From Corallium rubrum (lineage: Eukaryota; Cnidaria; Anthozoa; Scleralcyonacea; Coralliidae), in NCBI GenBank assembly GCA_964035015.1, contig OZ036004.1, positions 12,810,927 to 12,874,926 on the forward strand: DNA of 64,000 nucleotides, read 5' to 3'. Below are positions 1,636-55,839 of this stretch, piece after piece (position 1 is the first letter of the stretch; the number at the start of each line of letters is the position of its first letter). Made by a program: the position numbers and the translations under genes. The notes beneath the pieces were generated by a model that worked only from the letters and a program-made list of their open reading frames with translations, did not search any database and was not told the origin of the DNA.

Positions 1636-4600
1636 TTAATTGTTTTCAAAAGTTAAGAGTTGGATCTCTGCCTGTTCATCCTCTAATGCTGTTCGAAGGT
1701 TAACTCGGCCAAATCCATAACGGTCGGGTGCTTGTCTTTCTCTTTGTGGACGAATTGCAGCAGGCTCTCCGACTAACTGAGGTCCAGGAATCTCATCACC
1801 GTCTATGTCAAATCTACTGTCCTCTGACGCAATTGAGTCAGTGTCTGCAACACCGACATTCGCATCATCTGAATCCGAACTCTCTTCGCTATAATTGAAC
1901 TGCAAGTGTTCAGGTCTCTCATAGTCCTTCTTTAGCCGCCGATGATTCACAATCTTTCTCTTTCCCCCTCCGAAAATAGACTTTATTTCGTATGATGTAT
2001 CTCCTATAAGCTTAACAACCTCATACGGACCTTGGAAGCGTTCCCCAACTAACTTCTTGGCAGACCCTTTGGGCCTTTTCGGATAGAAAATCCATACTTT
2101 CTCACCAAGCTGAAATTGCCTGAAACGAATATTTGCTTCTCGTCTGACGGATTCATCCTGACGTTTCTTGATAATCCGATTTCTCACTTTCGCGTGCAAC
2201 TGTTTGAGGGAAGACATTTTTTCGGAAAAGTCTTTCGTTTCTTTCCCCTGTGGCTTGCCCAGTTTCCCTGCACCAATCATGTCAGCTTTGTTTCTGCAGT
2301 TAAAGCCAAATATCACTGAAAATGGAGTCTCGCCCGTCGTGGTACTGCTGGTTGTCCTAATTGCGGACAGTGCAATAGGAAGTTTCTCATCCCAATCAGT
2401 TTGGTCTTCTGCCTCAATTTCCATGGCTAGACGCTCTGCGATGGTTCGATTCATGCGTTCCACTTGCCCATTGCATTGGGGGTTGTAGGGTGCGCTTCGA
2501 CTTCGTCTGATATCCAGGCGGGTGTGTAGCTCTCGTAACAGTTCAGATTCGAAGTTTCTGCCTTGGTCTGAATGTAACACTTCGGGAACACCATATCGAC
2601 AAACGATTTCTCGCAACAGCACCTCGGCGGTGGTCTTCGCAGTTTGATCGGGTACCGGAAAAGCTTCTACCCATTTACTGAGAGGATCTGTAAGAGAAAA
2701 TATGTATCGATTTCCACGCGGAGTCTTCGGTAACGGCCCGACAAAGTCCATATGCCAACATTGAAAAGGCTTCTGAGGAATGGGCAATTCACCAACTGGC
2801 GGTCGATCTGCCTTCTGTGTTCCCTTCCTTTGAAGACAAACATCACAGGAACGACACCAGTCTTTCACATCTCGTTTCCACTTGAACCAAAAAAATCGTG
2901 TGCCAACGTTGTACTGCGTTTTGGCCGCGCCAAAATGTCCCCATTGGTCATGAAGGAGTTGTAGTATACGTGGTACCTGCGACTGCGGGACCATCATTTG
3001 TACAATGTTCCGACCACGACGTTTGCTCTGCATGACAAGTACGTCGTTGATTACTTTTATGTTCTTGCCATGTGTCTTGATAAAACTGTTAATGTGACGC
3101 TTGATATTCTTCGGTTTCTTCCGATCAACAGCCCAACGATAAATCACACCAATATCAGCATCCTCCTTTTGTAATGCACACAGCTCTCTATCTGTCCATA
3201 CACCGTCTATAGTTACCGCATGAACAGGTGCACGACTTAATGCATCGGCAACTGTCATCAGCTTGCCAGGACGATGTTTAATCGTGAAGTCGTAAACATC
3301 AAGACAAACACGCCATCTCGCTAGTTTTCCTCTAGGCTCTTTCAGTTGCCGGAGATAGGTTAGTGGCTTGTGATCTGTGATGACGGTGAAATGTCTCCCT
3401 TCCAGGTACATGTTAAACTGATCTAAGCTCCAGACAACACCCAGGCACTCTTTCTCAGTTGCCGAATAATTCTTTTCAACAGCAGTAAGCGCTCGAGATG
3501 CATAAGCAATCACCCTCCGTCCTTGTGTAAGGATGGCACCCAGGCCAAGATCGCTGGCATCTGTTTCGACAGTAAATTCTTGCTGAAAGTCCGGATAGGC
3601 GAGAACTGGTGAGGAAGTTAGTCTTTGTTTCAGAACGCAAAATGCCTGTTCACAATCTGGACTCCACGAAAACTTTACATTTGCTCGGGTTAGTGCATGT
3701 AGAGGGGCAGCAATATCGGCAAAATGTTCGATAAAACGTCGATAGTACGACGCCAGTCCAACAAAGCGTCGAACTTCGAGGACGTTAGTAGGCCGCGGAA
3801 AGTGCTGGATGGCCTTAGTTTTCCCCTGGTCGGGCTTAATTCCTTCCGGGCTAACAACAAACCCCAAGTAATGGACTTCTGTACAGGCAAAGACACACTT
3901 TGAAGGATTCAATTTCAAACCAGCTGCTCGCAACTTGTCTAAAACGAGTTGAAGGTGCAGTAAGTGTTCCTCAAAGCTTCGAGAATAAATAATAATATCA
4001 TCCAAATAAATGAGAAGAATTTGCCAATTCAGTTCTCCTAATACGGACGTCATCAGCCTCTGGAACGTTGCTGGGGCCCCCTTAAGGCCAAAGGGCATGG
4101 TGTTGAATTCAAATAGACCTTTGTGACACGCAAAGGCAGTTTTAGCACGGTCGGACTCCTGAACAGGAACTTGCCAATAACCCTTGGCTAAATCTAAAGT
4201 GGTAAACAGTTTTGCTCCGCCTAGGGCATCTAAACTATCATCAATCCGAGGAATTGGGAATGAATCTCCAACTGTGCTTTCATTCAAACGTCGAAAATCT
4301 ACACAGAATCGAGTTGAACCATCTTTCTTTCGCACCATCACAAGTGGGCTTGACCAGGGGCTCTTGCTAGGTCTGATTACTCCCTTTGCCAGACCATCTT
4401 GCACAAAACTGTCTACATCTGCCAATTTGTGAAATGGGACCCTCCTTGGGGGTTGTGAAATTGGGTGAGCCCCTCCTGTTGGTATTTCATGCTCCACAAC
4501 ATCCGTCAGGCCAGTTTCGTCATCAATAGAAATAACATCCCCATTCTTCTGAATCACTTTATAAAGGCGATGTTTCTCGCTAGATGAAAGATCTGACTCA

Positions 4601-4839
4601 TTTGACTTTTCCCGAGCGAGCTTATCAACCTTTTGGGCCCTGTCCGCTTTATCTAACTTGCTGCATTTACCAGGATACTTTGAAAGTTCACTGATAACAG
4701 CAGTTTCTGCAAAGTTGGTTGAAAACTGTCCGAAAAATGTTCCTGCATTCACATGACAAGGGGTATTGGTTGGGTTTGTCACATGCATAAGAACACGCCG
4801 GTCTTCTCTTACGGTGTCAAATACTCTGCCACAACCCAA
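1636..4839 (-). CDS. pol: Pol: reverse transcriptase, RNase H, integrase
   Basis: A 1067-residue polyprotein. The start overlaps the protease tail. RT spans roughly residues 130-330 with catalytic YLDD near 278. RNase H begins near TDASDLGLGAIL (about 427). The integrase zinc-binding HHCC region is near 630-668 (HDQWGH, then CRSCDVC). The catalytic core has D near 698 (HMDFVGPL), D near 758 (HSDQG) and E near 794 (GQVERMN), a complete DDE set. A GPY/F-like module (GPYEVVKLIGDTSYEI) follows, with an acidic tail. The frame is unbroken, consistent with a young copy. Confidence 0.96.
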   Translation of the reverse strand: MGCGRVFDTVREDRRVLMHVTNPTNTPCHVNAGTFFGQFSTNFAETAVISELSKYPGKCSKLDKADRAQKVDKLAREKSNESDLSSSEKHRLYKVIQKNGDVISIDDETGLTDVVEHEIPTGGAHPISQPPRRVPFHKLADVDSFVQDGLAKGVIRPSKSPWSSPLVMVRKKDGSTRFCVDFRRLNESTVGDSFPIPRIDDSLDALGGAKLFTTLDLAKGYWQVPVQESDRAKTAFACHKGLFEFNTMPFGLKGAPATFQRLMTSVLGELNWQILLIYLDDIIIYSRSFEEHLLHLQLVLDKLRAAGLKLNPSKCVFACTEVHYLGFVVSPEGIKPDQGKTKAIQHFPRPTNVLEVRRFVGLASYYRRFIEHFADIAAPLHALTRANVKFSWSPDCEQAFCVLKQRLTSSPVLAYPDFQQEFTVETDASDLGLGAILTQGRRVIAYASRALTAVEKNYSATEKECLGVVWSLDQFNMYLEGRHFTVITDHKPLTYLRQLKEPRGKLARWRVCLDVYDFTIKHRPGKLMTVADALSRAPVHAVTIDGVWTDRELCALQKEDADIGVIYRWAVDRKKPKNIKRHINSFIKTHGKNIKVINDVLVMQSKRRGRNIVQMMVPQSQVPRILQLLHDQWGHFGAAKTQYNVGTRFFWFKWKRDVKDWCRSCDVCLQRKGTQKADRPPVGELPIPQKPFQCWHMDFVGPLPKTPRGNRYIFSLTDPLSKWVEAFPVPDQTAKTTAEVLLREIVCRYGVPEVLHSDQGRNFESELLRELHTRLDIRRSRSAPYNPQCNGQVERMNRTIAERLAMEIEAEDQTDWDEKLPIALSAIRTTSSTTTGETPFSVIFGFNCRNKADMIGAGKLGKPQGKETKDFSEKMSSLKQLHAKVRNRIIKKRQDESVRREANIRFRQFQLGEKVWIFYPKRPKGSAKKLVGERFQGPYEVVKLIGDTSYEIKSIFGGGKRKIVNHRRLKKDYERPEHLQFNYSEESSDSDDANVGVADTDSIASEDSRFDIDGDEIPGPQLVGEPAAIRPQRERQAPDRYGFGRVNLRTALEDEQAEIQLLTFENN

Positions 4840-5528
4840 ACCAAAGCGCTCAGACCCCTCCCCCCTGCCGACTCTATCAGACCCACTGTACCAGGTAATA
4901 TGTCCCCGTCCAACTTGCCTTCAATCACCTGCATTGATCTAGGAGGCACAGTCACTGCTGCTGATGCATGTATGCGACATACTCTAGGAGGGAAAGGCTT
5001 GGTACCACTGTCCTGGTCTGCTATATTATTTGTACCTGATACAAATACTTGAGAGCCTATTGACAAATGCATGTTTAATCGAGGCAACAGATCCATGCCA
5101 ATAATTGCAGGGTATGTTGACTGTTGAACTACAGTGAATCGATGTTGCTCAATGTGTTGATCGCCCACTTGACAATCCGTTACTAAATCATAAACTGTGC
5201 CCATCCCAGAACCATCTACTGTATGAGGGGAAAATTGGCAGCCCATCTTGGACCCTTGTGCTTGTTCTGCTAATGACTCTTGTAAAACACTTATTTGGGC
5301 TCCTGTGTCCACTAACCAAGTACAACGCTGACCCCCGATTTCACCCTCAATCTCTATGCTACTAAATGTTGAACCTCCACTACTTGTAGCTGAAACCAAA
5401 CGATTATAGTTCCCAGTCCCATAAGTGGCTGAAGAGGGCTGGATTTCCTCTCCAGCCACCCTTAGTTTCCCGACGGTGGTGGCAAAAAGGTTGTGCACTG
5501 GGCAGCTCGGTGCCCAGGTTTTTGGCAT
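4809..5528 (-). CDS. Aspartic protease region of Ty3/gypsy element
   Basis: This frame encodes the retroviral-type aspartic protease that matures Gag and Pol. The catalytic motif is LVDTGAQISVL, and a downstream AIIGMDLL segment matches the usual second conserved block. The ATG at 5528 lies inside gag, so the true product is probably a Gag-Pro fusion made by -1 shifting. The frame ends 31 bp into the pol frame, again displaced by -1. That second displacement could be programmed or a one-base mutation. Confidence 0.9.
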   Translation of the reverse strand: MPKTWAPSCPVHNLFATTVGKLRVAGEEIQPSSATYGTGNYNRLVSATSSGGSTFSSIEIEGEIGGQRCTWLVDTGAQISVLQESLAEQAQGSKMGCQFSPHTVDGSGMGTVYDLVTDCQVGDQHIEQHRFTVVQQSTYPAIIGMDLLPRLNMHLSIGSQVFVSGTNNIADQDSGTKPFPPRVCRIHASAAVTVPPRSMQVIEGKLDGDILPGTVGLIESAGGRGLSALVWVVAEYLTP

Positions 5529-6328
5529 CTATAGCATAGGCCAGAAAATGATTGTCGAGTTCCCAGGCCACCACGGTCAACAGTGAGACTCTTCGAACGA
5601 CAATCACGAGCATAGTGACCCACCTTACCACAGTGGTAACACTTGACTGACGACCTTGTCAAACTTTGACTTTGATTCTTGCTTTGCATGGCTGCAACTG
5701 ATGCAGTAAGCTGTTGCTGATTGGTAGATAATTCTGCCAATTTCTGCATGATCTCTGACTCAGGACTAGCATTGGATGGACCGCTACCCATTCCACTTGT
5801 TGAAACGGCAGAAACTGTTGAATCCGTTTGCTCAATTTTGGTGGCACGCTGCACCAGTTCAGCGAGAGTTGCAGTATCTGCCATCACCCAGGACAGCTTG
5901 CGTGCAATATCACCCTTCAACGCATTGCGAAAGTGAGCCAAAGCAAGGGAGTCGCAGGTGTTTTTATCTGTAACACCTGGAAAAGCTTTGCTAACAAGTT
6001 GGAGTATGGAATATTTGAGTTCCACTGCAGATTCCCCCGATTTTTGGCGGCGATCAGCGAGCTCTTTTTGCCAATCCGCTGCAGTTTTCTGCGATTGAAA
6101 CCGTTCGATTAATGCTTCTTTTGCATGAGCGAAAGTATCTCGTTGGTCAGTCGTTAAAACACTAAAGAATACTTTAGCCTCACCTTTCAACGATAAATGT
6201 AAACACGCCACTTTCTTGTCATCTTCTTCAATTCCCTTGGCGACGAAAAACGACTCGACTTGATTTAGGTGGCTCTCGACCGTAGGGCCATCCGTGTGAT
6301 CCCATAACGATGCTGTAATAGACGTCAT
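5462..6328 (-). CDS. gag: Gag polyprotein of Ty3/gypsy element
   Basis: A 288-residue structural protein that would form the cytoplasmic virus-like particle and bind element RNA. The N-terminal ~170 residues resemble retrotransposon Gag capsid regions. Two CCHC zinc knuckles sit near the C-terminus (CYHCGKVGHYARDC and CYRCQKPGHRAAQC). The start at 6328 is the first ATG about 145 bp inside the 5' LTR. The stop overlaps the protease frame by 67 bp, and protease is one step back (-1). No perfect X-XXY-YYZ slippery site was seen; a TTTTTG run lies in the overlap. Confidence 0.93.
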   Translation of the reverse strand: MTSITASLWDHTDGPTVESHLNQVESFFVAKGIEEDDKKVACLHLSLKGEAKVFFSVLTTDQRDTFAHAKEALIERFQSQKTAADWQKELADRRQKSGESAVELKYSILQLVSKAFPGVTDKNTCDSLALAHFRNALKGDIARKLSWVMADTATLAELVQRATKIEQTDSTVSAVSTSGMGSGPSNASPESEIMQKLAELSTNQQQLTASVAAMQSKNQSQSLTRSSVKCYHCGKVGHYARDCRSKSLTVDRGGLGTRQSFSGLCYRCQKPGHRAAQCTTFLPPPSGN

Positions 6329-6454
6329 TTTGTTTTCTTTTACTCAATCAGACAACACTTCGTATACGTATAACTTCTCTTCTCGATCACTGTTCAGGCC
6401 TCGAACTCGGCATTAAAACCAACAAAGTTAATAAAACAAATATATCCTTCAGAT

Positions 6455-37628: not shown

Positions 37629-40129
37629 TTAAAAGAAATAGGCATTGCGACCTTTCCGTTTGCCAAAAATGTCTATCATTCTTTCTATGTCTTCTTTCAT
37701 CACACGATTTGCGTACTCCCTTTCAATGTTTATCAGTGCTATGTTGCCAAGCCTCTTTTCGCCCATGGTACTCCGAAGGTACGTCTTCAATCTTCGCAGC
37801 CCGCTGAATGACCTTTCGGCGGAACACGATGTTGCCGGAATCACTGCTAAAATGGTAGCGGCTTTCGTGAACTCAGGCACCATTTCACACAATTCGTTTT
37901 TGTAAAGCAGATCTATGACATTTGAAGCTGTTAGTACACGATCGCAAGAGGCGTCAGCGTTACTTTGTTTGAATTGGTTAAAAAGTCTCTGATCGACTTC
38001 TATTAGATCTTTGTCGAGATCATAGAAGTTACCAACGAGTTCGTAATCTGACTCTGATGGTTTTTCGCTCAGAACAACTGCACCCAAAGCACAGAGCACG
38101 TCTTGGTCATTTCCTTGAAAACGAGTATCCAGCTCTGCCAAAACCTGGTCAAGAGATTTGTAAAAGGTATTGACTCTATAGTGCTGCATAGGTGTCATCG
38201 CTTCGGTGTTCGATGTTGCTGACTCGCCAACGAGATATTGTACACGGCGAGAAGGTTTTTTCCGTGGTACACGTGCATCACGAAAGTTGACAAATTTAGT
38301 ATTCTGGGTCCAGCTTTTAATGTCACTGCTAATTTGATCGGCTCGTTTCCAAATCAGTTCGTAGCTTTCCTCGGTACGGCATTCTCTCAATGTCTTCATG
38401 GTAAGTGTCGCGTTTCGTCGAGCGTTAATAACATCAACGTTCTTACCCTGTAAATAAGTGCTCAGAGCACTGGTGTTTGACAAGATGACTTTCAGTATAC
38501 ATAGTCCCAGAACAAACTCAAAATCGCAGATGGCATTTAGCAGGGCTCTGCTATCGGAATAAGTTTTAGGGTCTTTGTCGTTGGCCAGTTTAATTAGGGC
38601 TTTCACAATTCGCTCGATCTGTTCAGTTACAGCCTTGACCGCTTCCCATCGACAAGACCAACGCGTTACACTTAGGGATTTAAGTGTCAACATCAAATGA
38701 TCGCGTTCGACTTCAATATCACCGAACATGGCGTGCCGTTTCGAACTTGCCTCAAGGAGATTGTACAGACTCTGAATAGTCCCGAGTGCATTACGCAGTG
38801 GTTCGACTTCTGACATCGTGTCGTGCAACGCTAGGTTAAGTAAATGTCCGTAACAATGCACATATATCGCACGTGGAGAACTGTCCTTCATCCGCGCGGC
38901 TACTCCCTTTTCTTTGCCACTCATGTTAGCTGCACCGTCAAAACATTCGCCAACTATATTGATCAAGTCCAGGTTGAGATCGGAGATCGCCTTCGTTATC
39001 AGATCGTATAGCGTTTTGCCATCGGTTGTTTTCGTTTCGTAAAAGCCGACGAAAGCTTCTTTTTTAACTCCATCGGCGATAAAACTAAGGCATATGGAGA
39101 CTTGCTCATGACGACTGATGTCGGATGTTTCGTCCACGATCACACCAAACGGCCCACTAGCGATGCAATCCTGCTGAATTCTTTCTAGTATAAGATCAGC
39201 TAATATTTGAAGAATTTCGTTTTGAATCTCTGGCGCAGTCCATTGAATCTCTTTCGCAGTCCAAATTTCTTCTAACTGAAATGCATCCGATGAGACTGAA
39301 TTTGTATCAAATTGTGATATAGTCGTGTTGTCCGTGTTGTCTTCACATTTTGACGTGTCTACAAGTTTTCCTTGTTCCGATGTATCCCGAACACTCTCAG
39401 ATGAATTCACCACACTTTTCACAGAATCGTTTGGAGTCGGATCTAGTTTAGGTCGTTTGGCTACGCCTACGGGTTCATTGTCATCTTTCCTGGTGAAGTT
39501 CAGTTGGGTTTGAGAAGGGGATATGACTGTAGTAAATTTCACATTAGGGACTTTAAGATTCAGACGACGGACTACGGCTACGGTAGAAAGTTTAACAGTG
39601 ATATTAAATGGTGGTGTATTTATACATTCAAATTTTAAGATACACAATCGCGCGGACTCGTTTTGTTCTTAAATTCTTGAAGAAAAACACTTGTTCAATC
39701 TATGTTAATCGCGAGAGTAAGGTTAAGCTTTCCCAAGGCTTCTGTAGTGATTCAGGTTCCGCGTTGTCTTTACAACGTAAAAATGCTTTTTCTACGTTGT
39801 CAACAGAGTCACGACGGCGTAAAGATTACTCTTGGGACCGTCATTTGCAAAAGCTCTTTGTATTTGACATAAAATTCTATTGTGCAAACACGTTGCCGTA
39901 GTCGTAGTCGTTGTGTTTTCTTAAAGTCCCTATTTTTTCCGAGGTGTTGACTTTTGGCATGGCGGTCTTTGTAATCGGAGTCAATGACTTTACTGCATTC
40001 AGAACAACTGACGCGAAGACGGTAAGCGTGATTCTGACTCTTCTGAGACTGTTTAGACCGTTTGCCATCCATAAATCTATTAGGTGATGAGCGGACTGAG
40101 ACTAGTGTCCTGTGTCTTGTTACGAACAC
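37629..40129 (-). pseudogene. hAT-family transposase interrupted by a MITE
   Basis: The main frame (39544-37629 plus read-through of the MITE) has the hAT catalytic regions: GVIVDETSD, IVGECFDGAANMSG, SVTRWSCRW, and a C-terminal dimerisation domain (PATSCSAERSFSGLRRLK, NIALINIEREYAN). The upstream frame 40129-39933 on the same strand carries a CxxC-HxxxxH zinc-finger-like segment (CSECSKVIDSDYKDRH). The two are separated by the TA-flanked MITE 39547-39930, and removal of that MITE plus one TA joins them in frame. The TTF zinc finger and the early DUF4371-type region expected in full-length relatives seem deleted. The element is therefore inactive unless spliced. Confidence 0.85.
39547..39930. 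mobile_element. TA-flanked MITE inside the hAT transposase gene
   Basis: Inverted ends GGGACTTTAAGATTCAGACG and GGGACTTTAAGAAAACACAA, with about 38 bp of arm similarity, lie between TA dinucleotides at 39545-39546 and 39931-39932. It splits the zinc-finger-like N-terminal part from the rest of the transposase. Confidence 0.75.
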
Positions 40130-40199
40130 CGTAAAAAGAATCTTAGTCGAGGCAATTAAATTTTTTTAATGTACTTATTATAAAGTATAAACCACACGA

Positions 40200-41897
40200 T
40201 AGATCCACTCTGCACACGAGCTCCTACATGTAAAAAAACTTTAATTGATTCATATAAAAGTCACAAAAAGCCGTTATTTGCTTGCTTTATAGATTTTCGG
40301 AAGGCCTATGATAGTGTATGGAGAGAAGGCTTATTTTTCAAACTCATTCGATACGGCTGCAGCCGGAATTTTGTGCGTGTTTTACTTAGTATGTACTCCT
40401 CTGTTACGTCGGCTGTCAAGTTGAGTTCAGGGGTTACCCCTTTCTTTCCATCTAGCATTGGAGTCAAACAGGGGTGCAACCTTAGCCCAACTTTATTTAA
40501 TGTTTTTATAAATGATATTCCGGAGTTATTTAACTCACAAGATTGTGATCCGGAGTCTGGGTTACAGGAGAGTCTTTATAAGTTGGAGAGTTATGTTAAA
40601 AGGTGGAGACTAAGCATCAATCTAAAAAAATCTAAGGTTTTAGTTTTTGGTAATAAATCTCAAAGGCGTCTATATATTACTTCAAATTGGCATTTTGGGG
40701 GAGACATGATAGAATGTGTTGATGAGTACTGCTATTTAGGAATTACTTTTCACTACGCTGGGAGTTTTAAACTTGCACGAAAGTTGTTGCATTATAAGGC
40801 GTTGCGTGCATATCATAGTATATTTAGAAACTTCTCTAATGTGGATAGTGTCTCGATTAAGGTTCTCTTAAAATTATTCTCAACCCTTGTATCTCCGATT
40901 CTATTATATTGCTGCGAGGTATGGGGAGTATATGTTTTGGGAAGAATAACCAATATTGATATGTTCAAGAAGAAATTATTCAGTGTGATCACAGATATTG
41001 ATAAGCTACATTTAAAATTTTGTAAGCGAATTTTAGGAGTTCATTCAAAGTCTACTAATTTAGCGGTCCTTGCCGAACTAGGTAGAATGCCGGTGATTGT
41101 ACGAATTTTGACTTTGGTTATTAAATTCTGGTTAAGAGTGAGTAGTTCAACCTATAGGAATCAATTAGTAGGAAAGGCAGCTCGTGTATGCATTCAGTCA
41201 TGTTCTCAGAATGCTAAATTCACTGATTTCTTGTTGAATATGTGTGATATCGGGTCTTTGGAGAATACTGTGGTTATGTCTAAAAATGATATTAATAATC
41301 TATCTAAATATATAAAAAATGAATTATGTAAAAGATATAATACTATATGGAAAGATCAGACTCAACAATGTAGTAAATTGCGTATCTTAAACCTTGTGAA
41401 ACCACATTTGGAATTTGAAAGTTATTTATCTCGAGTCAAAAATGTAAAGCATCGTCAAGCGGTTACAAGGTTTAGGGTATCCGCACATAAGTTTCCAAGT
41501 GAAGTTGGGCGATATACAAATATCGCATACAATTTACGATTATGTCCCATTTGTAAGTCAAAGGATGTAGGTGACGAATATCATTATTTCTCAAATTGTA
41601 ATAATGATAAATTAGTAAATCTTCGAGAAAATTTCATAAACGAGATATCAAATATTAATGGTAGCTTTAAATTGTTGAGTAAAAACGATCTATTTCATTA
41701 TTGTATGGCTATGCATGATGAATGCATATCAGAATGTACAGCCAAATATGTATATAGTTTAACCAAGATTTTCAATGACTCTACTGTAGGTAATTAGTTT
41801 CTTGGGTGAATAACTTTTTTTTGTATTAACATTTGTATTAGTATCCTATGTACCAATAATGGTGTGATGGAAATAAAGATTATTATTATTATTATGT
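40200..41897 (+). pseudogene. 5'-truncated LINE ORF2 fragment (Jockey/CR1-like) lacking YxDD
   Basis: An open frame to 41797 covers RT blocks ACFIDFRKAYDSVW and GVKQGCNLSPTLFNVFINDI, then jumps from DCDPESG directly to LQESLYKLESYVKRWRLSIN. The stretch that should contain the catalytic YADD is deleted. The C-terminal part is typical of non-LTR elements (FCKRILGVHSKSTNLAVLAE, then CPICKSKDVGDEYHYFSNC). A 3' UTR ends in ATAAAG and TTATTATTATTA near 41880. It is inactive as an RT. Confidence 0.88.
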
Positions 41898-48092: not shown

Positions 48093-48214
48093 CACTCTCC
48101 TCCGCAGAGGCTTTTCTTTGGCTACTTTTAGCTATATTTACCACTGAATTATTAGTAATGGATAACTAGGGATAGTGGAGAGTAGCCAAAGAAAAGCCTC
48201 TGCGGAAGAGACTG
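48093..48214. mobile_element. 122-bp MITE with perfect 9-bp duplication GTGCAACAC
   Basis: GTGCAACAC lies at 48084-48092 and 48215-48223. The ends CACTCTCCTCCGCAGAGGC and CAGTCTCTTCCGCAGAGGC are inverted, with arms continuing TTTTCTTTGGCTACT. The terminal 19 bp nearly matches the kinase transposon ends, so this is probably a deletion derivative or a MITE mobilised by it. Confidence 0.85.
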
Positions 48215-49734: not shown

Positions 49735-49845
49735 ACGCACACACACACAACCGCGCTCATGACATAGCGGATTATGGTTTAGCAACCAGTATCCACAAAA
49801 ATGAAACGCGGTCCCTATAATCGCATTAAAATATGATACTCATAT
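48480..49845. repeat. Diverged repeat family, copy 2 (internally duplicated)
   Basis: The block GAAACATTTAATAGTTAAAAG to CTTGTCGTTTAGGCGAC occurs twice (48785-48905 and 49095-49215). A (CA)n tract lies at 49657-49748. The kinase transposon is inserted at the TCATATCGCTTTAAT part of this family; the other half resumes at 54948. Confidence 0.7.
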
Positions 49846-49921
49846 CTCTCTCCTCCGCAGAGGCGCTGGCATGCGGGCGAGGAAGACGCGCGAGGAATGA
49901 TGGGAAGAGGGAAAGAAAAGT

Positions 49922-50915
49922 AGCCTCTGCCAGATAATGTTGTCAATATGGCGCCCAAATTCCGTGATGGACTAGGCACCAGACTCGGAATTTCAATATA
50001 TAATCAAATTTAACTTACGGAAAAGTTGGAAATCCATAAATTGTGAATAAAAGACACATTTAAATTGCTGGCAGACAATTCTCAACTCGAGAATGTTAAT
50101 ATTGTTACACAAGGACAGGATTTTCCAGTTTTGAATTATGCAATTAAACATGTAAACAAATGCTAGCCGAGAAAGTTTATATCAAAAGACACTGAACTGT
50201 TGTAAACATAGATCTTACCTATGATAAGTTGCACGTATATACGTAGTGCATGTGGGACGTTTGCGAGCTTGGTGTAATGTAGAAAGTTAGCGCTGCATGT
50301 TCGTTGGCTTTGTTTATCAACGATTCAACGTTCGATATTAAAACGTTTGTCAGTCTGGCAGCGTTTCGAATTTTTTTATTCGTTCCGCAGGTGACTTCTA
50401 TAGAAGAATTCAGAACTAATAACATCCAGAGCAACATTCTAGACTTAGATCTTGAAGAAAACGTACTTCGTGCAAACTATCGTCGCTATCTCCCATGACC
50501 AGAGAACCGCCGATTTGTTACTTTATTGAAATCTCTTCGTATTCAGTTCGTCTGCCGACTTGAAATTCGATGTTAAAAAATCCTTCTCCGGCGTACTTGC
50601 ACTTATTGCAAAGCATTCTATATCTTCTTCTGCATTATGGTTATCGTAAAGAGAATAAAGAAGTCTAAATTAATTGAAATATAGTTTACATCTAAATTGA
50701 TTTAAAATGGCAGACACGTAAATAACAGCAAAAATCAAATAAATTCATGTAATCGCACTATTTCTTCACGAAAATCGTCATGCTAACCTTTGATACTTAG
50801 ATCTTGAACGGAGTGCTGAATTTCCCCCAAATCGTTGGGTTTTTATGCCATTTAGTAGCACTTACCGCAGAACCGCAAATCCTGCCACAGAACCGCACAT
50901 TATCTGGCAGAGGCT
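49922..50915 (+). other. ~1-kb segment inside the left arm, bounded by a 17-bp inverted repeat
   Basis: Bounded by GCCTCTGCCAGATAATG and its exact inverse. Absent from the right arm. It holds a short open frame from an ATG near 49949 (MAPKFRDGLGTRLGISIYNQ), a frame LENVNIVTQGQDFPVLNYAI near 50090, and a frame after an acceptor-like TTCCGCAG at about 50390 (VTSIEEFRTNNIQSNILDLD, stop at 50498). These might be exons of a small gene, a captured host fragment, or chance. The part around 50220-50290 is similar to 29855-29920. No target duplication was seen. Confidence 0.45.
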
Positions 50916-50922
50916 TCTCGCC

Positions 50923-51272
50923 TATGGTGGCCGAGAACTGCCAGTATATTTTTCTATATTTTTTTATAAAAGAAAATGAAATAAAAACAAATTAAAAGCA
51001 AAAAGCATATCAAATACGAAATGAAACACTTTCTAAATGTAATTGCTGAATAAAAAGATATGTCAATTAAAAATTAAAAGCAAAAGCAAACCCAAATTAA
51101 AATGAAATGTAAAACTAAATACAAACTAAAAGTAAACGTTAAAAATTTATCGGACCAGCGCTGCCACTACCATCATGCATTGCACGCTTAGTATAGCCCG
51201 AGGACAACTGGCTACACGCATTATTAATCTCGCATTATTAATCTCGCATTATTAATCTCGCGCGCAGTCACC
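50923..51272 (+). repeat. Left inner inverted arm of the kinase transposon
   Basis: Runs from TATGGTGGCCGAGAACTGCC to CGCAGTCAC. It includes a (A/T)-rich middle with AAATTAAAAGCAAA words and three 14-bp copies of CTCGCATTATTAAT near the inner end (the right arm has two). The transposase ATG lies about 80 bp beyond, so the arm probably supplies its promoter. Confidence 0.88.
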
Positions 51273-51350
51273 ATGCTGGAAACTACGCAAAATTAATATT
51301 ATTCAATTCATAATTGTAAAATACTTTATCAGTTTTATATCAGTTTAATC

Positions 51351-53058
51351 ATGACGGATAACAGGTGTGAGAGTTGGTCAAGCGATTTTGTTTTAAAGGA
51401 AGCCATGGAAAAGTATGTTAGGCAAGGATTGAAACGGACAGAAATGTTAGATTTTTTGCAAAAAGAATTTCCACAGTACCCATGGAGTGTTCGTTCGTTA
51501 GACAGACGCTTACGACACTTCGAGATTTTTTACAACAGTCCCTGTGTCACCATCGAAACTGTGGAAGATGCTGTTCGGAAGGAACTGAAAGGCCCAGGAA
51601 AACTTTTAGGTTACCGGAGTATGCATAAGAAGATCAGGCAAGAACACAACTTAAACGTCACCCGAGATCAAGTGTATGCCGTGATGTGCCATCTTGATCC
51701 TGAAGGTCTAGAAAGCAGAGGAGGTGTCGGCGCCAAGAAAATCCGGAGAAAGAAAGGGAATTTTACTTCTAAAGGACCAAATTGGGTACACTCATTAGAC
51801 GGACACGATAAGCTGATGGGTTATCAGAACTCAACATTTCCACTGGCGATCTATGGTTGCATTGATACTGCCAGCAGAAAACTGTTGTGGCTTAGAATCT
51901 GGGTGACCAATAGTGACCCAAAACGCATTGGACGGTGGTATTTGGAGTACCTGTACGAAACACGGAAAATGCCGGCTATGTTAAGACTGGACAAAGGAAC
52001 GGAGACCGGAGTTATGGCTACGATGCATGCTTTTCTGCGACGTAATCACGAAGACGATATGGATCCAGTGGATACAGTACTCTATGGCCCTTCAACTTCA
52101 AATCAAGTAAGTGGATATTTTGATCGTCACTTATTTAATGGAATGTACTGATCCAATTAGCCCTGTCATTTTTTTGTCAACCAGATTGAAAGATGGTGGA
52201 GAGAGCTGCACGAACGCATGGAAAAGTTTTTTAAAGTAAAATTGAATTGGTTGAAAGATCAAGGTCACTACAACCCTCATAATTACAATGACAGGTTTGT
52301 GAATTTTAACAAATTTTTCGTTTAACTTTATAGATTGCGTTCTTGAAATAACTGAGTCTCTTACTCTCTTCACACACTGTCATAAAAACATCTGCTTACC
52401 GTCTATACCACACATGCAATCTTCTGATTAAAAAAACATAAATTTGTACAAAATAATATTAAAGGTAAGATCGGGAGAATTTTGTGGATATATGCATGCA
52501 ACCGCTATAACATTTTTTTTCGCGTCTTATTTTAATTTTGTAGAATGCTCCTAGCGTATATTATGGTTCCTATGCTGCAGAAAGAACTCGATACTTTTAA
52601 AGATACTGTGTGGAATACACACCGAATTCGTGCCCAAAAGGAAACTATGCTACCTGACGGAATTCCCAATCATATATACGATTTTCCAGAACAGTATGAC
52701 CTAGAAGAATGTGGTACGTATATGCACATCCATGATTGATTCCCATTATGAATTATTAAAAATAATGAAGTTGGGAAGCGTCAGGCTAACACGGACACTG
52801 TTTAGTATAAAAAGACAAACGTTTTGATATCTTAATTTTTTTTCTTATTTTAATGACTATTTTAAATTGTCTTCAGGTTTACCAATAACCGAAATGCAAC
52901 TACAAGAAGCTGCAGTTCAGTCAGGAGTCCTCGAAATAGATGACGATTTCTTATCGCAAGAATTTAGAGAAAGATGCGAACTTGTTATGCCAAATGTAAC
53001 CGATATTAAACCGGAAGACTGCAAAGAGGCATTCATTTATTTAAAAAGAAACTTTTAG
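51351..53058 (+). CDS. Integrase-like DDE transposase, four exons, 405 aa
   Basis: Exons 51351-52106, 52185-52294, 52544-52713 and 52877-53058. Donors are CAA|GTAAGT, CAG|GTTTGT and TGTG|GTACGT; acceptors are AACCAG, TTTGTAG and CTTCAG; all joins are in frame. Residues 15-60 look like a helix-turn-helix (GLKRTEMLDFL...VRSLDRRLRHF). The catalytic set is D150 (WVHSLDGHDKL), D214 (LRLDKGTET) and E254 (NQIERWWRELHE), spacing close to retroviral-type integrases. It belongs with the metazoan 'integrase core domain' proteins common in cnidarians and fish. It would cut and join the element ends. The glutamate is encoded immediately after the first intron, so splicing is required for activity. Confidence 0.85.
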
Positions 53059-53205
53059 TTATATTGAACACAACAAAAATAATTTTTAATCATAGTAAAC
53101 TAAAATAAGTTGTTATTAAGTAGTTATACTTATTGAGTAGAATAAAATCTCTCAGTGTTAACTGTGATCAGTTTGCATATAATAAGTATTCGAGTATTAA
53201 TATGT
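53059..53205. terminator. Shared convergent 3' region of transposase and kinase genes
   Basis: Only 147 bp separate the two stops. A plus-strand AATAAA lies near 53141 inside this gap, close to the kinase stop. A minus-strand AATAAA (TTTATT on plus, near 53036) lies inside the last transposase exon. The two transcripts would overlap at their 3' ends. Polyadenylation use is inferred from the hexamers only. Confidence 0.5.
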
Positions 53206-54438
53206 CTATAATTTACCTAAACCTAACATCACGCAAAAGTCGTTACATTTGTGATGTTGCACGAAGTTGTTGATTGCGGTGGTGGTTAAGTTGCCAGTGG
53301 CAAATAAGAATTCCTCACCCGCCATCAAATCTTTTGAAGCGATCTCTGGATCAAAAAGACAAGTTCCACTGCCTTGCATATCAACAATCATCAGCTCTTT
53401 GTTTGAACGCTCATAAGAATAATGAGCAAGGCTCTCTGCCTTCTGCCTCACGTCAGAATCTACGCCACACAACATGCCCGTGTTGTTGAGGTACTTGAAA
53501 AACTCGCCTTCGACATACTCTTCTACAGTGACAATTTTGTCTCCTTCCATTTTCCCCAAGTATATCTTTTTATACTCCAACGTTTCGCCATACTGTTCTA
53601 AATTTCCTTCCCGTGTCAAATCATTTTTCAACTTGGCTGCTAGGTTTTTGGACAGCATATGCATTTGCACAACCTTGCGTGTATGTTGTTCGGTTGTTTG
53701 GTTTGTGTCGACGATGGTGTCAACAGCCGTCTTTAAATATTTTTTGACCACCCAGATTCGGTCCTCAAAACCCGAAGTCTTACTTTTAGCTTTAAATGCT
53801 GCGCGAAAACCTCCTTGCGCAAAAGATTCTTTTTCAATAGAGAATTCGACAGACACTGCCAATCGCGACCACACCAGCTTGTCAACGTTGAAGGCAAACA
53901 GCTCTATAACCTCGGTCTCCTTATCGTTGATAACTTTCCCGATTTTTAGCATATCCAGAACCGACAAACTTTTTGGGATGACTTTACTCGGACTTGGGAC
54001 TCTTTTTATCGGATCAGATCGAGCGTTTGGAGCAGATTTCTTCTTGCGTGGTGGCTGATATTCAAATATATCGCGGTCATCTGTGTGCGACGTTGTATGT
54101 TCGACCCGTAGCCCCGGAATAAACCTGATATGGATCACGCGCAAATCTGGTATATGATCCAAAGATTTGCAGGAAGGACCTTGTTCACCAGCCAAAACAT
54201 CGCAAATCATATTTTTTTCTAATCGCGAAGCAAAATATTGTTGGCATGCCATCTTCAAGTTTTCGAACGTCAGCTCGTCGTACTCGAATGGCACGAACTC
54301 TCTCGGACCGACACGCAAATATTTTTGCGCTTTCCCTGCCACTTCAGAGCTAAGGCGCTGGACAACTAACTCTTCTTTCTCAAGAATGGTGTTCTTAGGA
54401 CCGCTTTTTCCTCCTTTGTGTGTTCTTTTACCCTTCAT
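53206..54438 (-). CDS. Alpha-type protein kinase encoded within the transposon
   Basis: An intronless, unbroken 410-residue protein. Residues 1-125 are an unrecognised N-terminal region; PPRKKK near 129-134 may be a nuclear signal. The alpha-kinase domain spans about 185-410: glycine-containing loop FAQGGFRAAFKA (206-217), ATP lysine in WVVKKYL (232/233), hinge-like VEEYVEGEF (305-313), catalytic VDMQGSG (352-358) and LFDPEI (362-367). The zinc-binding HKCNDFC (396-402) pairs with a histidine in LAHYSYERS. Alpha-kinases (elongation factor 2 kinase, myosin heavy chain kinase, TRPM6/7, ALPK families) phosphorylate Ser/Thr. The substrate here is unknown; transposase or host DNA-repair proteins are possibilities only. 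Start is the first ATG, about 50 bp inside the right arm. Confidence 0.9.
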   Translation of the reverse strand: MKGKRTHKGGKSGPKNTILEKEELVVQRLSSEVAGKAQKYLRVGPREFVPFEYDELTFENLKMACQQYFASRLEKNMICDVLAGEQGPSCKSLDHIPDLRVIHIRFIPGLRVEHTTSHTDDRDIFEYQPPRKKKSAPNARSDPIKRVPSPSKVIPKSLSVLDMLKIGKVINDKETEVIELFAFNVDKLVWSRLAVSVEFSIEKESFAQGGFRAAFKAKSKTSGFEDRIWVVKKYLKTAVDTIVDTNQTTEQHTRKVVQMHMLSKNLAAKLKNDLTREGNLEQYGETLEYKKIYLGKMEGDKIVTVEEYVEGEFFKYLNNTGMLCGVDSDVRQKAESLAHYSYERSNKELMIVDMQGSGTCLFDPEIASKDLMAGEEFLFATGNLTTTAINNFVQHHKCNDFCVMLGLGKL

Positions 54439-54488
54439 TTCGGTTTTGAATTTTTTTCACGACTCGCCTGCTTCCGAGGTCATTGGTA

Positions 54489-54824
54489 CCGTGACTGCGA
54501 AATTAATAATGCGAGATTAATAATGCGTGCAGCCAGTTGTCCTCGGGCTATACTAAGCGTGCAATGCAGGGTAGTGGCAGCGGCAGCGCTGGTCCGATAA
54601 ATTTTTAACGCTTACTTTTAGTTTGTATTTAGTTTTACATTTCATTTTAATTTGGGTTTGCTTTTGCTTTTAATTTTTAATTGACATATCTTTTTATTCA
54701 GCAATTACATTTAGAAAGTGTTTCATTTCGTATTTGATATGCTTTTTGCTTTTAATTTGTTTTTATTTCATTTTCTTTTATAAAAAAATATAGAAAAATA
54801 TACTGGCAGTTCTCGGCCACCATA
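54489..54824 (-). repeat. Right inner inverted arm of the kinase transposon
   Basis: Near-perfect inverse of 50923-51272. The kinase ATG (54438) lies about 50 bp inside, so both genes start at equivalent places relative to the same arm sequence. Confidence 0.88.
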
Positions 54825-54947
54825 CTATTCGCCTCTTCTCGCCGCTTTTTCCACCTTCCCGACGTTCCCCGCGCGCTTTACGATAGCCCGCGCGCCTGCG
54901 ACAATTGCCTGCAACTACCAGAATAGAAGCCTCTGCGGAGGAGAGAG

Positions 54948-55839
54948 ATACTCATATCGCTTTAATTTCGCTTGAGTGTAATGTTAGGTAAATCGCCAAA
55001 AACAGGAAACGCGGACGCTAATCGCATTGTTAAAGAATATGATATTTTTATGCTTTATGTGTCTATGTTTTAGACTCTGGTAACATATGCATTCATGCGT
55101 CTCAATAAATCGATGTTCAACGCGTTTTTTGAATGGGTATTGCATACGTCTACATGTAACATAAATAATGCCAAGCACGGTGGATTTCTGCGTGTAAACC
55201 TATAGCTAAAACGTCTTGGTCGAGCGCTTATAAACACATAAACACTTGAAACATTTAATAGTTAAAAGGGCATTCAGATTTCAGAAAGATCTTTAATCCG
55301 AAGCCAAACAAGCGCTCACACTGTTTCTTCGTCCTTGGAAAGCTTGTCGTTTAGGCGACGAAGTCGAAATGCGTTCCGGAATTATAGTAACACCTTGTAT
55401 GGTTTTATTAGGTGATGCTGTATTGAACACGAGAAAGTATGGCATGTAAATGTGCAGTCACGGCGCGCTTGTATTTGTAGTATAAAACAACAGTACATAC
55501 ATACATACACATACATACATGCATGCATAAAAATGTATTAAAATGCTGAAATACATATTGTTTCGAAACCAGACTATCCGCAAAAATTCTCAAAAACGTT
55601 CAAATTTATACGGACAGACCAGTAGCCCACTGTGAGCTGTCGACTTGTCATCATATTTCTTGGCGTCTTGTGATTGCGTGCAAATGTTCATTACCTGAAA
55701 CAAAACTCAACATTTATCTCCCATTCGTTGTTCGTGTTCACGTTCGTAAACCCTTCTGACATATAAATAAGACTTCTGAAGTATGCTGATTCGGACTATT
55801 GCTATTGGTCTGCGTTGATCACGTGATTGACGAAAACAT

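What the first reader, a model, noticed from the sequence alone, without database searches (positions are those of the whole stretch)
49846..54947. A DNA transposon that carries its own intact alpha-kinase gene
Seen: a 5.1-kb element with perfect 19-bp outer ends, ~340-bp inner inverted arms and a 10-bp flanking duplication. It encloses two unbroken convergent genes, a DDE integrase-like transposase and a 410-residue alpha-kinase with the DxQG, DPEI and HxCxxxC motifs. Known: alpha-kinases are a small atypical kinase family of host genes (eEF2K, TRPM6/7, ALPK types). Inference: the kinase is a transposon component, because it lies wholly between the arms and starts the same distance inside its arm as the transposase does. 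It could regulate transposase activity, host repair or translation. I do not recall a described transposon class with this cargo, but I could not search.
Basis: partly seen in the sequence, partly recalled or inferred. Interest (0 to 1): 0.92.

Follow-up and report, generated by a model that had tools for sequence, protein, structure and literature searches.

The report
IS3EU-type transposon with alpha-kinase gene
A cut-and-paste jumping gene in this animal-like genome carries, beside its transposase, a conserved protein-kinase gene; many related copies keep the same pair, so the kinase looks like a working part of the transposon rather than accidental cargo.

Summary
The kinase is a real transposon component, but the element was drawn wrongly. 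The unit is the inner 3.9-kb part (50923-54824), TATGGTGGCC...GGCCACCATA. In the same genome 6 of 6 other close copies read end there, with perfect 6-bp duplications. The outer 19-bp ends and 10-bp duplication belong to an unrelated 1.2-kb repeat (33 other listed matches cover at least 90% of its left part); 5 of 6 sister copies read across the site show it empty.

Ends, duplication length and gene order match the IS3EU superfamily. One paper (PMC12730594) says in passing that fungal IS3EU elements carry an alpha-kinase opposite the transposase, so the architecture is known. New, as far as my paper searches saw, is its scale in an animal-type genome: 93 kinase loci, 63 with a convergent transposase within 4 kb (random: mean 1, maximum 4); the same end motif around kinases 44-59% alike; kinase and transposase diverging together (rho 0.74); purifying selection between families; active-site residues in at least 141 of 144 sequences; a well-supported branch between these and eight host-type alpha-kinases. 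A distant transposase group mostly lacks the kinase (6 of 54 near one).

Most likely the kinase is a trans-acting regulator of transposition; its substrate is unknown.

The parts
50923..54824 (.). the transposon proper: 3902-bp IS3EU-like element, TATGGTGGCC...GGCCACCATA
   Evidence: 6 of 6 other close copies read end at the same bases, each with a perfect 6-bp duplication
50923..51248 (+). left inverted arm
54496..54824 (-). right inverted arm, 97% identical to the left over 329 bp
51351..52106 (+). transposase exon 1 (start codon; HTH-like part; D172 and D214 of the DDE triad)
52185..52294 (+). transposase exon 2 (E254 of the DDE triad)
   Evidence: GT-AG model; kept in 5 of 5 copies
52544..52713 (+). 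transposase exon 3
52877..53058 (+). transposase exon 4 and stop codon
53206..54438 (-). alpha-kinase gene, 410 aa, single open frame, convergent with the transposase
   Evidence: PF02816 E 4.7e-36; ORF
54103..54378 (-). N-terminal block of the kinase protein (residues 21-112), unnamed, slightly more conserved than the kinase domain
   Evidence: no Pfam match for the window's own piece, best PDB match E 0.38
53233..53820 (-). alpha-kinase catalytic domain (residues 207-402)
   Evidence: profile of the family matches PDB 1ia9 at 1.3e-27
49846..50922 (+). left part of the outer, unrelated 1.2-kb repeat
   Evidence: 33 other listed matches cover at least 90% of it, 89-98% identity
54825..54947 (+). 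right part of the same outer repeat
   Evidence: continuous with the left part in 5 of 6 sister copies read
50914..50922 (+). left copy of the imperfect 9-bp duplication (CTTCTCGCC) at the nested insertion
   Evidence: empty-site comparison
54825..54833 (+). right copy of that duplication (CTATTCGCC, 7 of 9 alike)
49836..49845 (+). target duplication ATACTCATAT of the outer repeat, left
54948..54957 (+). target duplication ATACTCATAT of the outer repeat, right

Best explanation
The finding is a two-gene cut-and-paste DNA transposon of the IS3EU type, 50923-54824. Shown by comparison: it has moved as a 3.9-kb unit with TA..TA ends and 6-bp duplications, and its alpha-kinase is a recurrent, selected component of a whole lineage of such elements. 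Inferred: the spliced DDE transposase cuts and pastes the element, preferring targets like SANNTS; the kinase, probably an active enzyme with an extra conserved N-terminal block, acts in trans as an accessory regulator. It would phosphorylate the transposase or, somewhat more likely, a host chromatin, repair or silencing factor, and so help the element to move or escape silencing.
For: Boundaries: 6 of 6 other close copies share both ends and carry identical 6-bp duplications; of 12 diverged elements examined the opposite end was found in 11, with a perfect 6-bp duplication in 10. Kinase-side motif TATGGTGGC in 27 of 30 kinase loci. Both genes intact in 5 of 7 close copies. Coupling: 63 of 93 kinase loci have a convergent transposase within 4 kb, against a random mean of 0.96 and maximum of 4 in 300 runs; within 12 kb 70 convergent, 3 otherwise arranged, 20 none. 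Of the 22 diverged loci held as sequence, 18 show a convergent transposase piece within 1.5 kb and the other 4 at 2.5-8.4 kb. Transposases of at least 60% identity near an alpha-kinase: 58 of 66; 48-59%: 27 of 30. Divergence correlates, rho 0.74, 71 pairs. Selection: in 6 between-family pairs pS is 0.67-0.89, pN 0.16-0.34. Active site: K232 143, E306 144, D353 144, Q355 143, D363 141 of 144. Tree: the 8 host-type kinases fall on one side of a branch with support 99/95.
Against: No function was tested: activity, substrate and effect are inference. Arms of this family also occur without a kinase at C30 and C263. The window copy lacks a clean 6-bp duplication (9 bp, 7 of 9 alike). Within families 3 of 15 pairs have dN/dS of 0.62, 1.17 and 1.37 (6 to 13 changes each), and 4 pairs have no synonymous change. 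A distant transposase group mostly does without the kinase, so it is no general need of such transposases. Two host rows of the tree have long branches, which the tool flags. No expression data were available.
Confidence: 0.86

Rival explanations
1. One-off capture: the kinase is host-gene cargo picked up by one element and of no use to it.
For: Other fungal DNA transposons do pick up passenger genes such as TET/JBP (PMC12730594).
Against: The same pair in the same orientation occurs around kinases 44-59% alike, with the same end motif; purifying selection between families; the 8 host-type kinases tested lie across a long branch.
Confidence: 0.04
2. The first reader's 5.1-kb composite (outer ends, 10-bp duplication) is the mobile unit.
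For: Perfect outer ends and duplication around the whole stretch.
Against: The outer 19-mer is absent (up to 4 mismatches) from the six other copies and the roughly 600 bp read on each side; the outer repeat has 33 other near-full matches to its left part, and 5 of 6 read across the site are empty.
Confidence: 0.02
3. The kinase acts mainly on its own transposase (an on/off switch by phosphorylation) and not on host factors.
For: Tight linkage and coupled divergence of the two genes.
Against: Linkage is equally expected for a host-directed factor; no phosphosite was tested.
Confidence: 0.3
4. The kinase works outside transposition, giving the element a selfish advantage in the host cell, for example by changing translation or stress signalling as eEF2K does.
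For: Alpha-kinases include eEF2K; the profile matches it.
Against: The profile scores higher against PDB 1ia9 and myosin heavy chain kinase A than against eEF2K; nothing here points to translation.
Confidence: 0.15

Closest known systems
IS3EU / GingerRoot superfamily, fungal TET-carrying families with transposase and alpha-kinase (PMC12730594; PMC10045372)
   Same: TA..TA ends (TATGG..CCATA fits TAYGG..CCRTA), 6-bp duplications, integrase-like transposase, alpha-kinase in opposite orientation.
   Different: Those fungal families carry a TET/JBP gene between the two; here no further gene recurring across families was seen by eye in the 1.5 kb beside the kinase. The named relatives are invertebrate animals. 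Homology of the fungal and these kinases was not tested.
Alpha-kinases: PDB 1ia9 (TRPM7 by recall), myosin heavy chain kinase A, eEF2K, ALPK1
   Same: Catalytic domain and HxCxxxC motif.
   Different: The profile's N-terminal part matched none of them; borne by a transposon; separated in the tree from the host-type kinases of this genome.
Intons (fungal elements said to derive from IS3EU ancestors; meeting report PMC3520738, passage only)
   Same: IS3EU descent with added genes.
   Different: [quoted passage not shown] this element has two.
Styx of Zymoseptoria (PMC10853768, passages only)
   Same: IS3EU-related transposase with further genes; searched there with a 6-bp duplication.
   Different: Its other genes are described with GATA, CCHC and DUF3577 domains, not an alpha-kinase.

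Membership tests
IS3EU superfamily | TA..TA termini (TAYGG..CCRTA in the fungal families) | tested here: met
   Window and 6 of 6 close copies; both ends in 11 of 12 diverged elements, the far end of one not found within 750 bp
IS3EU superfamily | usually 6-bp target site duplication | tested here: met
   6 of 7 close copies and 10 of 12 diverged elements; the window copy has an imperfect 9-bp one, L027 a 7-bp one read by eye
IS3EU superfamily | DDE integrase-like transposase core | tested here: met
   rva_4 E 1.8e-19 for the relative P0121, but below the cut-off for the window's exon 1 alone; D172, D214, E254 by position
IS3EU superfamily | no HHCC zinc finger upstream of the core | not tested
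   only the absence of a Pfam zinc-finger match
IS3EU superfamily | groups with Repbase IS3EU transposases in a tree | not testable with these tools
   Repbase sequences not held
IS3EU with alpha-kinase (fungal report) | alpha-kinase gene opposite to the transposase | tested here: met
IS3EU with alpha-kinase (fungal report) | kinase homologous to the fungal IS3EU kinases beyond the shared domain | not tested
   no fungal IS3EU sequence at hand
Alpha-kinase family PF02816 | domain match and catalytic plus zinc residues | tested here: met
   E 4.7e-36; K232, D353, Q355, D363 in 141-144 and H396, C398, C402 in 136-138 of 144; the roles of these residues are recalled
Alpha-kinase family PF02816 | kinase activity | not testable with these tools
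   needs an enzyme assay
MULE-like or other 9-10-bp-duplication element (the outer unit) | classification of the outer 1.2-kb repeat | not tested
   only its copies and empty site were examined

The most novel reading that the evidence does not exclude
A large lineage of animal-type cut-and-paste transposons carries an obligate, dedicated signalling enzyme: an alpha-kinase with a unique, even more conserved N-terminal block that has co-evolved with the transposase over a long time and controls transposition or host silencing by phosphorylation.
Probability: 0.6. Interest if true: 0.8.

Novelty: new member of a known kind. Interest (0 to 1): 0.62.

Why it matters
Cut-and-paste transposons encode few proteins (one to two conserved ones, says PMC3520738, passage). 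A protein kinase kept under selection beside the transposase in many diverged families suggests that phosphorylation is built into the element's life cycle. Five intact copies and a kinase-poor transposase group in the same genome make that testable. It also warns that animal proteins annotated as TRPM6-like, myosin heavy chain kinase-like or eEF2K may be transposon genes.

Tried and rejected
Considered and rejected: the 5.1-kb composite as a unit; single capture of a host kinase; a further conserved gene between kinase and transposase, as TET/JBP in fungi (ORFs of 90 or more codons within 1.5 kb, judged by eye; apart from the transposase some recur among near-identical copies such as L018, L019, L021 and L026, none across families; they were not run against Pfam).

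Led nowhere: viral contigs and bacterial/archaeal genome contigs gave no relative of the kinase profile; the N-terminal block matched nothing convincing in PDB (best E 0.38) or Pfam (three families, one member each, best 0.002); no paper with the five phrases tried for transposon-encoded kinases. Structure prediction was never accepted by the queue, so there is no fold. The search for the N-terminal block alone in the own genome did not complete.

Limits of counts: one search scored 102 of 234 candidates, 150 of 666 (list cut), 150 of 161, 40 of 1196; protein searches list 120 of 325, 120 of 553, 120 of 338. The 93 loci come from merging same-strand matches within 3 kb, so the split copy on C13 counts twice. 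The converse counts use and the further rows picked by eye. The random control takes the largest listed coordinate as contig length. Dropped rows: the selection set left out L006, L011 and L014 (fragments); the tree also L008, L013 and L029 (27 rows became 24, plus 12 foreign and 8 host-type rows); one search left out L013 and L029 and proteins under 380 aa. The 12 foreign kinases in the tree were labelled TE by homology, without seeing their context. The target pattern was chosen after seeing the sites, and leaves out the window copy and L027.
Full report
What was checked. The raw observation holds in most details: 19-bp outer ends, 10-bp duplication, inner arms, a 410-codon alpha-kinase and a convergent integrase-like transposase. 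The transposase, however, is spliced. The 266-codon ORF ends before the catalytic Glu; joining four exons by GT-AG sites gives 405 residues with D172, D214 and E254. A 407-residue predicted protein of Dendronephthya aligns with it over 99% at 68% identity.

Where the element ends. The window's own assembly is held (474 Mb, 312 contigs). Six other copies of the family, 95-100% alike in the kinase or its pieces, were read with about 600 bp of flank. All six begin TATGGTGGC and end CCACCATA, where the inner arms end, and all six are flanked by perfect 6-bp duplications: CACCTC, CATCTC, GAGCTG, CACGTC, CACCTC, GAACTC. None has the outer 19-mer in the fetched stretch, allowing four mismatches. Five of the seven copies, the window's included, have both genes intact; one has lost part of the transposase and broken the kinase frame, one has its kinase split by some 8 kb. 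Two more places hold arms of the family without a kinase: C30 (one arm, neither gene in the 5 kb read) and C263, whose transposase match is partial with a stop.

What the outer ends are. The 1077 bp left of the transposon were searched in the genome: apart from the window's own, 33 of the 46 other listed matches cover at least 90% of it, at 89-98% identity (40 of 1196 candidates scored). Six were read across the insertion point; five continue into the sequence that lies right of the transposon in the window (one of them with a shorter junction), and one diverges. The transposon therefore jumped into an existing 1.2-kb repeat. The duplication there is CTTCTCGCC against CTATTCGCC, nine bases with two differences, not a clean 6-bp one. 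A 122-bp repeat at 48093-48214 has similar outer ends and a 9-bp duplication.

Is the kinase a component? One search lists 108 kinase matches, 93 loci after merging pieces. Within 4 kb 63 of 93 have a transposase match that is downstream and convergent, 1 has one in another arrangement and 29 none; random placements on the same contigs gave a mean of 0.96 and a maximum of 4 (300 runs). Within 12 kb the numbers are 70, 3 and 20. Of the 22 diverged loci held as sequence (L007-L030 without L011 and L014), 18 have a convergent transposase piece within 1.5 kb and the other four at 2.5-8.4 kb. Conversely, transposase matches of at least 60% identity lie within 12 kb of an alpha-kinase in 58 of 66 cases and those of 48-59% in 27 of 30; six of the eight exceptions of the first group cover only part of the exon. 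The more distant matches (34-44% identity, many with single long frames) have a kinase within 12 kb in 6 of 54 cases.

Ends of the diverged families. In 27 of 30 kinase loci the motif TATGGTGGC lies upstream of the kinase within the fetched 1.5 kb. For 12 diverged elements (kinase 44-54% alike) the far end was sought: it was found in 11, and 10 have a perfect 6-bp duplication; an eleventh reads as 7 bp by eye. The 16 six-base targets prefer the form NANNTN (13 of 16; frequency 0.095 in the window, p 2e-11) with G or C at the edges (29 of 32) (pattern chosen after seeing the sites).

Selection and descent. NG86 counts for 21 pairs are. In the 6 between-family pairs synonymous sites are near or at saturation (pS 0.67-0.89) while pN is 0.16-0.34; the one pair with a computable ratio gives 0.12. 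Of the 15 within-family pairs, 8 have ratios of 0.05-0.27, 3 have 0.62, 1.17 and 1.37 (6 to 13 changes each), and 4 have no synonymous change (0 to 2 others). Kinase and transposase identities to the window copy correlate (rho 0.74, 71 pairs; 0.64 for the 64 pairs below 90%). In a tree of 44 rows (40 different) the 8 alpha-kinase domains of the same genome without a transposase near fall on one side of a branch with support 99/95, the 36 transposon-type rows on the other. Two host-type rows have long branches, which the tool flags, and the root is unknown. Relatives from Saccoglossus, Actinia, Paramuricea, Dendronephthya and Exaiptasia fall inside the transposon-type group; their genomic context was not seen.

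The protein. The catalytic residues are kept in 141-144 and the zinc-type residues in 136-138 of 144 sequences (roles recalled). The profile's best solved relatives are 1ia9 (transient receptor potential-related protein, TRPM7 by recall; 1.3e-27), then myosin heavy chain kinase A, eEF2K and, lower, ALPK1. Residues 21-112 form a further conserved block (mean commonest-residue fraction 0.67 against 0.61 for the kinase domain) that matches no Pfam family convincingly and nothing solid in PDB.

How it probably works. Shown by comparison: the unit, the pairing, the selection. Inferred: the transposase mobilises the element; the kinase acts in trans to favour movement or persistence. I favour a host factor somewhat over the transposase as substrate, without direct evidence.

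What is known. Complete IS3EU families have TA..TA ends and usually 6-bp duplications (PMC10045372, passages; that text does not contain the word kinase). Fungal IS3EU families with TET/JBP end TAYGG..CCRTA and carry a transposase and an alpha-kinase in opposite orientation (PMC12730594, passages and section 4.1). In the listings I saw no other paper on an alpha-kinase in a transposon. These searches have gaps: one search listed 20 of 96 papers, two papers were not opened, of the 35 papers naming IS3EU I saw passages of five, and the library lacks most subscription journals and Repbase. So the kind is known, if barely described; this is a new member, with much more evidence for the kinase as a fixed part.

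Host. 

Noticed in passing
48093-48214: 122-bp inverted-repeat element with ends like the outer 19-mer and a 9-bp flanking duplication GTGCAACAC, apparently a small relative of the outer repeat.
   Followed up: partly
49846-50922 and 54825-54947: High-copy 1.2-kb repeat (33 other near-full matches to its left part) with a further inner inverted repeat at 49919-49940 / 50897-50918; its superfamily is not settled.
   Followed up: partly
52107-52184: Intron 1 sits just before the codon of the catalytic Glu; if retained, it would give a 266-residue protein without that residue, which could act as a repressor. Many exon matches of the 60-73% families end at the same residue.
   Followed up: no
genome G000, rows of 34-44% identity: Distant integrase-like transposase matches, many with single open frames of about 390-450 codons, mostly without a kinase near: a natural control.
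   Followed up: partly
target sites: Insertion targets resemble SANNTS (such as CACGTG, CACCTG, CACCTC), close to an E-box.
   Followed up: partly
relatives P0023, P0029, P0055, P0079, P0095, P0102: Public names such as TRPM6-like, myosin heavy chain kinase D-like, vwkA-like and eEF2K are given to relatives of this transposon kinase.
   Followed up: no
1636-6343, 37629-39668, 40184-41797: Gypsy-type gag-pol, hAT-type transposase and a reverse transcriptase ORF in the same window (names from domains).
   Followed up: no
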